Assembly (NCBI GenBank): GCA_018263435.1
Contig: JAANXD010000089.1
Span: 1 to 40,574 of the forward strand
Source of the DNA: Candidatus Scalindua arabica
GTDB taxonomy: Bacteria; Planctomycetota; Brocadiia; Brocadiales; Scalinduaceae
Direction of reading: 5' to 3'
Length of the DNA stretch: 40,574 nt
Of this stretch, positions 9,854-12,909 are shown one piece after another (positions within the stretch are counted from its first letter, which is position 1; each line of letters begins with the position of its first letter). The notes under the pieces were generated by a model, which saw only the letters and a list, made by a program, of their open reading frames with translations, searched no databases and had not been told where the DNA came from. A program made the translations under genes and the position numbers.

Positions 9854-10106
9854 TTAGAAGTACATCGCTGGTTATGTTATAGAAAATAGACAGAGGTTTT
9901 AACCAACCGAGTTTAGTAAAGATGCAATGTCTCCTATCAATTATCCACGTGAATACTAAGAAAATAAAAGAAAAATGTCACGGAAAACGACAGAAGTAAA
10001 TTTGTGAGCAAGATAATTGGTGGGATTTAACTCTTATTTTTCCTGAATTCCTGTTATTATTTTATCACCACGATTTTTTACAGTTTTATAAGGAGGTTTA
10101 TTTAAA

Positions 10107-10274
10107 ATGTGTCCTAAATGTTTGTCTTTAAATTTTGTAAAAAATGGACATCGATCCATAACTATCTTTTCCTTAAAAGGTAGTCGTAACAAAAATATTA
10201 ACAGGTACAAATGTAAAGATTGCAATCATAGATGGTCATCTTCAAGTCGATGGCAAACATCTGCTTGTAAATAA
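10107..10274 (+). CDS. Zinc-ribbon protein of the insertion element (InsA-like)
   Basis: 55 residues beginning MCPKCLSLNFVKNGHRSITI and ending RYKCKDCNHRWSSSSRWQTS with ACK. Two CxxC knuckles (CPKC, CKDC) about 35 residues apart are the classic N-terminal zinc ribbon of IS1/ISL3-like transposases, which binds element ends. It has a strong AGGAGG site 10 bp upstream of the ATG and starts 24 bp inside the left repeat. In the +1 frame, running past its stop codon, the DNA reads LVNNKWIVLLVAVDIYTLDV, which looks like the start of a DDE catalytic domain. A frameshifted fusion may therefore once have been made. Confidence 0.7.
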   Translation: MCPKCLSLNFVKNGHRSITIFSLKGSRNKNINRYKCKDCNHRWSSSSRWQTSACK

Positions 10275-10277
10275 TAA

Positions 10278-10721
10278 ATGGATTGTCTTACTTGTAGCTG
10301 TAGATATTTATACTTTAGATGTTCCCATGACTCACTAAAGCAACAATACAAAGACGACAATATCCAGAATAACTCAAACAGTGTCGAGTGTGTTATTTCT
10401 CATTTATCAGAAAAGATATACCAGGTGAAAAAATTCGAGTCTTTTCCTGGAGCGTATTATACAACAACGCTTAGCACTATTTACTGGCGACTCCATCAGT
10501 TTACTTGTTCGCGATACAAAGAACGCAATGGAAAATCACCACTTCTTTTAGCTCAGAGCCAACAAGATGTTCATGGGCATTGGATAGACGTGGTTTTGAA
10601 CATAAAGAATCAAAGTGAATGTATTAAGATTACAGATTATCTCCGTAGACCTATTTACATCTCTAAAGAAGGATTTGTAGATTTGAAAGATAGAAACCTT
10701 ATCGACTATGGCAAGTATTAA
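10278..10721 (+). pseudogene. Transposase remnant (C-terminal part after internal deletion)
   Basis: A 147-codon open frame. Its first 20 codons lie over the out-of-frame DDE-like start (WIVLLVAVDIYTLDV at about 10282-10325), so its own N-terminus is probably spurious. From about residue 65 on (YYTTTLSTIYWRLHQFTCSR, YKERNGKSPLLLAQ) it resembles the C-terminal tail of a DDE transposase. The catalytic middle is missing. I read this as an internally deleted transposase; the alternative, an unrelated small protein, cannot be excluded. Confidence 0.5.
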
Positions 10722-10760
10722 TTTCCTATCAATAATTTGAATTATCAAAGAGCTAGATTA

Positions 10761-10992
10761 TAATGAGGAGAACTCTCTCTCATCAGATATTATATACTCT
10801 GAAAAACAAGAGGGGTTTCTCTCACTCATGGAGGATAGGGCAATGCTGAAGAGTAACCTGAGCGCCTGAGTGAGGCAAATACCGCATGGTATCTCCCGCC
10901 ACATAAAGTGGGTGGGAGATGCCCCTCTTTGCAATACCTTGCGGGTTTGCTTTAAAGCGATAAACTTCGGGGGTTTGGGGGCAGAGCCCTCA
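10761..10992 (+). ncRNA. Strongly structured non-coding segment inside the insertion element
   Basis: No coding frame. Nested pairing can be drawn by eye. AAGAGGGG (10808-10815) can close with CCCCTCTT (10922-10929). Inside are CTCACTCA (10821-10828) with TGAGTGAG (10867-10874), the small hairpin GCCTGAGTGAGGC whose loop overlaps that pairing (pseudoknot-like), ACCGCATGGT, and a long hairpin GGTATCTCCCGCC with GGTGGGAGATGCC. Upstream, ATGAGGAGA pairs loosely with TCTCTCAT. Downstream is a G-rich stretch (CGGGGGTTTGGGGGC). It is much more GC-rich than its surroundings. It could be a structured RNA carried by the element or a degenerate catalytic or guide RNA; I cannot name a class. Confidence 0.5.
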
Positions 10993-11064
10993 AATATTCA
11001 AATGTTATAAATACACTTTTTGTAATCTGTTCTGAGATTTAAATTTTCATAGTATGTTTCTAGT

Positions 11065-11156
11065 TTATCACCCGAAATTTTTACAGTTCTATATACAAAA
11101 ATTTAAAGATTATTTACTCTTAAACCTATCAAATCTGTAAAAAATCGTGGTGATAA
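11065..11156. repeat. 92-bp miniature inverted-repeat element nested at the right end
   Basis: TTATCACCCGAAATTTTTAC (plus AG, 11065-11086) is a near copy of the left terminal repeat in the same orientation and is inverted relative to the right end at 11135-11156. Together they bound 92 bp of AT-rich DNA with no gene. This is what an internally deleted, transposase-less derivative (MITE) sharing the right end would look like. Confidence 0.6.
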
Positions 11157-11193: not shown

Positions 11194-11213
11194 ATAAACA
11201 TGTTACGATAATT

Positions 11214-11235
11214 CTATCACCCGAATTTTTTACAG
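11214..11235. repeat. Further copy of the element end repeat, directly before queA
   Basis: CTATCACCCGAATTTTTTAC followed by AG is a third plus-oriented copy of the 22-bp terminal repeat; it differs from the left end at three positions. It ends 13 bp before the queA ATG, so the 5' untranslated region of queA now consists largely of element-derived DNA. This may explain why queA has no clear ribosome site. Confidence 0.65.
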
Positions 11236-11248
11236 CGTCAAAAATTTT

Positions 11249-12612: not shown

Positions 12613-12909
12613 TTACCTTCTTTTAGCTGGCTTCTTCTTAGCCGCTGGCTTCTTCTTAGCTGGCTTCTTCTTAGCCGCTGGCTTCTTCTTAGCTGCTGTC
12701 TTCTTCTTGGCCGGTTTCTTCTTAGCTGCTGGCTTCTTCTTAGCCGCTGGCTTCTTCTTAGCTGCTGGCTTCTTCTTAGCCGCTGGCTTCTTCTTAGCTG
12801 CTTTCTTCTTAGCCGCTGTCTTCTTCTTAGCTGGCTTCTTCTTAGCCGCTGGCTTCTTCTTAGCAGCTGGTTTCTTCTTAGCTGCCGGTTTTTTCTTCTT
12901 TACTGCCAT
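12613..12909 (-). CDS. Lys/Ala/Pro-repeat histone H1-like DNA-binding protein
   Basis: 98 residues, almost entirely repeats of KKKPAA or KKKPA with occasional KKKTA, from MAVKKKKPAAK to KKPAKRR. Lysine is about half of the protein. Such tails occur in bacterial histone H1/Hc1-like proteins that bind DNA non-specifically and compact the nucleoid. Here no separate folded domain is present, so the whole protein is a basic tail. The gene is a tandem repeat of 15- and 18-bp units and should vary in length between strains. GGGGGTG lies before the ATG. It sits next to a long AT-rich gene-free region. Confidence 0.85.
   Translation of the reverse strand: MAVKKKKPAAKKKPAAKKKPAAKKKPAKKKTAAKKKAAKKKPAAKKKPAAKKKPAAKKKPAAKKKPAKKKTAAKKKPAAKKKPAKKKPAAKKKPAKRR

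What the first reader, a model, noticed from the sequence alone, without database searches (positions are those of the whole stretch)
10761..10992. Complex structured non-coding segment inside an insertion element
Nested and pseudoknot-like pairings (AAGAGGGG/CCCCTCTT outside; CTCACTCA with TGAGTGAG overlapping the loop of GCCTGAGTGAGGC; a 13-bp hairpin) occupy about 150 bp of GC-rich DNA between a dead transposase and the right terminal repeat. Structured RNAs carried by mobile elements include guide and catalytic RNAs. I cannot match this to a class I know, and no IscB/TnpB or intron-encoded protein is present.
Basis: partly seen in the sequence, partly recalled or inferred. Interest (0 to 1): 0.7.

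Follow-up and report, generated by a model that had tools for sequence, protein, structure and literature searches.

The report
New RNA family carried by transposons
A folded RNA of about 170 bases with its own promoter-like signal, held together by a covarying pseudoknot and absent from the Rfam library, rides near the end of many unrelated bacterial jumping genes in at least ten phyla; its job is unknown.

Summary
Window 10821-10993 encodes a structured RNA inside a dead IS1/IS1595-like element. Homologues occur in 19 of 294 genomes sampled from the phylum and in at least 116 GTDB stretches across ten or more phyla. All share one architecture: a variable stem P1 around a near-invariant 37-nt core; a long variable hairpin P3; a conserved AAnGCGnnAAA joiner; and a pseudoknot between the core's 4-nt loop and the bases after the joiner. 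The pseudoknot covaries: 74 of 81 non-redundant copies pair fully, against 27 when partners are swapped. G-U versus A-C wobbles (58:7 in P3) show that the + strand RNA is the selected molecule. A -10 hexamer recurs at a fixed place. The RNA lies between transposase and terminal repeat of IS3 and IS21 elements, and beside IS256, IS110, ISL3, IS481 and tyrosine-recombinase genes. One genome holds six identical 2,643-bp IS21 copies, each carrying the RNA and flanked by target-site duplications. Related IS110 copies lack it. Rfam 15 and the literature searched have no match. Function is unknown; I favour a trans-acting passenger RNA using a host partner (about 45%).

The parts
10062..10087 (+). 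left terminal inverted repeat of the host insertion element
   Evidence: 96% complementary to 11131-11156
10104..10274 (+). N-terminal zinc-binding fragment of the dead transposase (IS1/IS1595 type)
   Evidence: NCBIfam NF050000 E=9e-9, over its cut-off
10278..10721 (+). remaining open frame of the decayed transposase, 147 aa
   Evidence: no Pfam or NCBIfam match; only relative found is another short relic in one genome, 67% identical
10737..10764 (+). promoter-like site TTGAAT-16-TATAAT upstream of the RNA
   Evidence: 10 of 12 consensus matches; a -10 hexamer recurs at a fixed place upstream of the homologues
10821..10828 (+). stem P1, 5' arm (CTCACTCA)
   Evidence: covarying helix across homologues
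10830..10866 (+). near-invariant 37-nt core GGAGGATAGGGCAATGCTGAAGAGTAACCTGAGCGCC, holding the core hairpin
   Evidence: alignment A2; conserved across phyla
10848..10851 (+). core hairpin loop GAAG, 5' side of the pseudoknot
   Evidence: pairs with 10965-10968; covariation
10867..10874 (+). stem P1, 3' arm (TGAGTGAG)
10875..10886 (+). outer stem P3, 5' arm (GCAAATACCGCA)
   Evidence: P3 helix own vs swapped partners 9.8 vs 6.3 bp; G-U 58 vs A-C 7
10888..10923 (+). 13-bp inner hairpin of P3 (terminator-like, with a U-run, in 35 of 90 homologues; not in this copy)
10940..10950 (+). outer stem P3, 3' arm (TGCGGGTTTGC)
10954..10964 (+). conserved joiner AAAGCGATAAA (family AAnGCGnnAAA)
   Evidence: position counts
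10965..10968 (+). pseudoknot 3' strand CTTC
10975..10993 (+). 3' hairpin P4 (TTGGGGGC AGA GCCCTCAA)
   Evidence: hairpin of at least 5 bp here in 60 of 90 homologues
11131..11156 (-). right terminal inverted repeat of the host insertion element

Best explanation
Shown by computation: 10821-10993 is a member of a previously uncatalogued, widespread structured RNA family whose genes sit at the transposase-3'-side end of unrelated insertion sequences and move with them. Its fold is P1 + invariant core hairpin + P3 + AAnGCGnnAAA joiner + loop-to-joiner pseudoknot, often followed by hairpin P4. Inferred: it is transcribed from its own promoter starting at P1, and it acts in trans as a compact passenger RNA that engages a widely conserved host component (protein, RNA polymerase or ribosome) and so helps the carrying element persist or tunes its activity. 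No single transposase family can be its partner, and its orientation relative to the transposase is not fixed. The copy in this window is a structurally intact RNA left in an element whose transposase has decayed.
For: Covariation in P1 and core: 10 of 16 pairs change on both sides; score 0.458 vs 0.193 in shuffles, 0/500 as high. Pseudoknot: 74 of 81 non-redundant copies fully paired vs 27 swapped, max 41 in 5000 swaps, with loop classes such as GGGA/TCC, GAGG/CCT and GGAG/CTC each found in several phyla. G-U far above A-C on the + strand. -10-like TANNNT at -20 from the core in 54 of 136 copies vs about 2-3 at most offsets. Transposase or recombinase gene families nearby in 65 loci, nearest one convergent in 42 and upstream codirectional in 12; Pfam families on the downstream side vs the upstream side. 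Terminal repeats bracket RNA plus transposase in IS3 and IS21; six identical 2,643-bp IS21 copies with target duplications. IS110 relatives without the RNA. No ORF: triplet at the would-be start is ACG 84, CTG 31, ATG 22.
Against: No expression data and no partner identified. Convergent placement in most identified cases would also suit a cis antisense role. An internal terminator-like hairpin in 35 of 90 copies is hard to square with one simple full-length transcript. About half of the loci have no transposase cluster assigned nearby, some because contigs end or genes were not classified.
Confidence: 0.45

Rival explanations
1. Cis-acting attenuator: a riboswitch-like aptamer (core + joiner + pseudoknot) controls read-through of the terminator-like hairpin inside P3, and the read-through product is an antisense or interfering transcript against the convergent transposase gene.
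For: Hairpin plus U-run inside P3 in 35 of 90 copies, only 2 on the other strand and 4-10 in shuffles; segments beyond it (P3 3' arm, pseudoknot strand) are conserved as RNA, so read-through must occur; nearest identified transposase is convergent in 42 of 65 loci; invariant core with variable stems resembles aptamers.
Against: At least 12 loci have the transposase upstream on the same strand; a 2,376-nt plasmid carries the RNA with no transposase found; no consistent complementarity to the transposase leader in 14 elements beyond background.
Confidence: 0.22
2. Guide or scaffold RNA for a nuclease or recombinase encoded elsewhere in the genome (like TnpB, IscB or bridge RNAs, but with the partner in trans).
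For: Pseudoknotted scaffold of about 170 nt in transposons; RAGATH-18, a structured RNA once of unknown role, proved to be a TnpB guide (PMC11061315).
Against: No Rfam match; no TnpB or IscB among the common neighbour families; the 30 nt after the pseudoknot show no repeat match within the locus beyond control; IS110 relatives lack the RNA.
Confidence: 0.12
3. Self-cleaving or otherwise catalytic RNA of a new class.
For: Compact pseudoknot, invariant internal loops and joiner, variable stems, mobile context, as in known small ribozymes (general knowledge).
Against: No match to ribozyme families in Rfam; no direct evidence of catalysis.
Confidence: 0.1
4. DNA-level element: a folded single strand or terminal hairpin recognised by transposases.
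For: Always close to element ends where these could be mapped; shared by many elements.
Against: G-U exceeds A-C by 26:6 in P1 and 58:7 in P3, which RNA folding of the + strand explains and DNA folding does not; a promoter signal is present; transposases of unrelated chemistry would have to share the site.
Confidence: 0.04

Closest known systems
Bridge RNA / seekRNA of IS110 and IS1111
   Same: structured RNA in a non-coding end of an insertion sequence; some copies here lie in IS110 elements
   Different: found in many non-IS110 elements; related IS110 copies lack it; conserved loops and variable stems, whereas bridge RNA loops are variable guides
RAGATH-18 and omega RNA of TnpB/IscB (HEARO)
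   Same: transposon-borne scaffold RNAs of similar length, with pseudoknots
   Different: no nuclease gene among the common neighbours, no Rfam match, no guide-like 3' segment found
IS10 RNA-OUT and other antisense regulators of transposases
   Same: small RNA with its own promoter within an IS, often opposite to the transposase
   Different: lies at the 3' side of the transposase, lacks leader complementarity, is conserved between unrelated IS families
IS 3' terminators exapted as 'mobile attenuators' (PMC2965389)
   Same: terminator-like hairpin near the end of IS elements
   Different: much more elaborate fold with invariant core and covarying pseudoknot, shared across IS families
Mobile/repeat sequence candidates of GC-IGR screens (PMC11109978)
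   Same: structured motifs near transposases, in several copies per genome
   Different: the one motif described in the passages read (MRSC-65-2) is a single long stem with UYCCGG repeats; whether this family is among the 250 unlisted candidates could not be checked

Membership tests
IS110 bridge RNA / seekRNA | encoded in the non-coding end of IS110/IS1111 elements | tested here: not met
   present in IS3, IS21, IS256, ISL3 and other contexts; absent from IS110 relatives in G026 and G032
IS110 bridge RNA / seekRNA | loops complementary to target and donor DNA | not tested
   the core is near-invariant across phyla, which argues against variable guide loops there
omega RNA (TnpB, IscB) / RAGATH-18 / HEARO | match to the Rfam covariance models | tested here: not met
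   no match at gathering, nor any of these families up to E=10
omega RNA (TnpB, IscB) / RAGATH-18 / HEARO | adjacent RuvC or HNH nuclease gene | tested here: not met
   not among the 25 commonest neighbour families on either side; rarer families were not listed
omega RNA (TnpB, IscB) / RAGATH-18 / HEARO | variable guide directly after the scaffold | tested here: inconclusive
   3' 30 nt without matches in the locus; whole-genome targets not searched
Group I or group II intron, known small ribozymes | match to Rfam intron and ribozyme models | tested here: not met
   a group II fragment in L029 lies outside the RNA
Antisense regulator (RNA-OUT type) | extended complementarity to the 5' end of the transposase mRNA | tested here: not met
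   longest matches 7-11 nt, controls 7-10, in 14 elements
Riboswitch / transcription attenuator | covarying aptamer-like core followed by a switchable terminator | tested here: inconclusive
   core and terminator-like hairpin present, ligand and switching not testable
Self-cleaving ribozyme (new class) | site-specific self-cleavage | not testable with these tools
   needs in vitro transcription

The most novel reading that the evidence does not exclude
A general-purpose transposition RNA: one conserved pseudoknotted RNA that unrelated transposases and recombinases (DDE, DEDD, tyrosine) have each acquired, and that controls or aids transposition or element survival through a universal host factor.
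Probability: 0.35. Interest if true: 0.95.

Novelty: categorically new. Interest (0 to 1): 0.8.

Why it matters
Known transposon RNAs (bridge RNA, omega RNA, antisense RNAs) belong to one protein family each. A single RNA module shared by at least seven unrelated transposase or recombinase types across ten or more phyla would be a new layer of transposon biology, either a common regulator or a parasite of transposons. The RNA is well defined, can be found with a covariance model, and occurs in sequenced cultured strains, so its function is directly testable.

Tried and rejected
Rfam at gathering and at E up to 10 for the window copy and two strong homologues: only chance hits. Blastn of the window segment against phages and plasmids: none. 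Core alone: one clear hit, plasmid pRGF00088, and one degenerate copy on a Termitidicoccus plasmid; none in phages or E. coli. Guide hypothesis: no repeat signal. Antisense to the transposase leader: none beyond background. Peptide: no conserved start codon. Target-site hypothesis (elements inserting beside the RNA): rejected by six complete IS copies carrying it. RNA-only MITE units: short shared stretches between copy pairs turned out to be IS remnants or lacked terminal repeats, except a weak 11-bp repeat in L008/L052, so not claimed. Intact copy of the window element: not found in 75 genomes of the class. Literature, including the literal core sequence: nothing relevant.

Full report
Observation. 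The segment folds much better than chance (232 nt, z -4.4 on +, -3.1 on -); the 173-nt RNA proper gives z -3.9 and its centroid shows P1, P3 and P4. The outer AAGAGGGG/CCCCTCTT pair and the small GCCTGAGTGAGGC hairpin conflict with the conserved fold, and I treat them as incidental.

Host element. The RNA lies in a 1,095-bp element bounded by 26-bp inverted repeats. The transposase is dead: an IS1/IS1595-type zinc-binding fragment and a 147-aa frame without any family match. Its only relative found is another short relic, which carries no RNA.

Homologues. Blastn found partial matches in 11 of 98 related genomes, the own genome included. Alignment of 13 copies gave a covariance model R1. R1 finds two copies in the host genome: this one, and one next to an IS110 transposase on another contig. 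It hits 19 of 294 genomes of the phylum. It is nearly absent from phage, plasmid and E. coli collections and rare in IMG/VR (2 contigs).

Fold. P1 and core pairs covary (10 of 16 pairs changed on both sides, 0 of 500 shuffles reach the score; slid versions pair 33-49% against 92%). The 4-nt loop of the core hairpin pairs with the bases just after AAnGCGnnAAA: 84 of 94 copies pair at all three positions against 31.7 on average and 46 at most in 1000 partner swaps. After removing similar copies the figures are 74 of 81, against 27 on average and 41 at most in 5000 swaps. The loop classes recur in separate phyla, so common descent alone does not explain the match. P3 outer helices average 9.8 bp against 6.3 with swapped partners. 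Allowing G-U and A-C equally, helices hold 26 vs 6 (P1), 58 vs 7 (P3) and 8 vs 4 (pseudoknot) of them: the + strand RNA, including the part beyond the inner hairpin, is what selection sees. A 3' hairpin P4 follows in 60 of 90 copies.

Transcription. TANNNT lies at -20 from the core in 54 of 136 copies, with T enrichment at -43 and -42 where a -35 box would be; this puts the start near the first base of P1. The window copy has TTGAAT-16-TATAAT further upstream. Within P3, 35 of 90 copies have a hairpin with a U-run, 2 on the other strand, 4-10 in shuffles; whether it terminates transcription is open. No start codon is conserved.

Carriers. Clustering of neighbouring genes shows transposases and recombinases as the recurrent neighbours. 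Pfam counts on the downstream, convergent side are dominated by rve/IS3, IstB, IS110, tyrosine integrase and Mutator; the upstream side is mostly unrelated genes, with a few transposases. Representatives are assigned to IS3, IS21, ISL3, IS110, IS256 and XerC-like recombinases, with an IS481-like case. In most identified cases the transposase is convergent, in 12 the nearest one lies upstream on the same strand. Inverted repeats enclose RNA and transposase in several IS3 and IS21 elements. In the complete genome of Desulfosediminicola flagellatus, six identical 2,643-bp IS21 copies with the RNA core 143 nt from one end are flanked by short target-site duplications; an Anaerolineae genome has three copies of a second element that carries the RNA. 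IS110 elements related to the host's second copy lack the RNA where the host's has it, with element sequence on both sides: the RNA is an optional passenger. A 2,376-nt plasmid also carries it without a transposase.

Mechanism. Shown: a conserved RNA fold, with a promoter signal, that travels with unrelated transposons. Inferred: because the transposase type and the orientation vary, it most likely acts in trans through a host component. The main rival is a cis attenuator producing antisense transcripts. Guide, ribozyme and DNA-level readings are listed with the evidence against each.

Novelty. Not in Rfam 15 and not found in the open literature searched. It could be among unlisted candidates of published screens, and most subscription papers were not searchable. 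The resemblance of AAGCGnTAAAC to part of the IS621 bridge RNA was recalled from memory early on, as a lead only; it did not hold up as membership.

Noticed in passing
window 12613-12909 (-): 98-aa frame made almost only of AAKKKP-type repeats, like a histone H1-like basic protein; the opposite strand is a leucine-rich mirror frame.
   Followed up: no
window 11055-11093 and 11204-11242: Two further copies of the element's terminal-repeat sequence (TATCACCCGAAATTTTTACAG) on either side of the right repeat, suggesting nested or repeated insertions before the downstream gene.
   Followed up: partly
L029 397-536 (-): A group II intron fragment (Rfam RF02003) lies a few hundred bases from the host genome's second copy of the RNA.
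   Followed up: no
L175 (plasmid pRGF00088) 1389-1640: A 2,376-nt circular plasmid with a replication-like protein carries the RNA, with P3 enlarged to about 180 nt.
   Followed up: partly
L176 4001-4023 and 4292-4313: A Termitidicoccus plasmid has two degenerate copies of the core hairpin about 290 nt apart.
   Followed up: no
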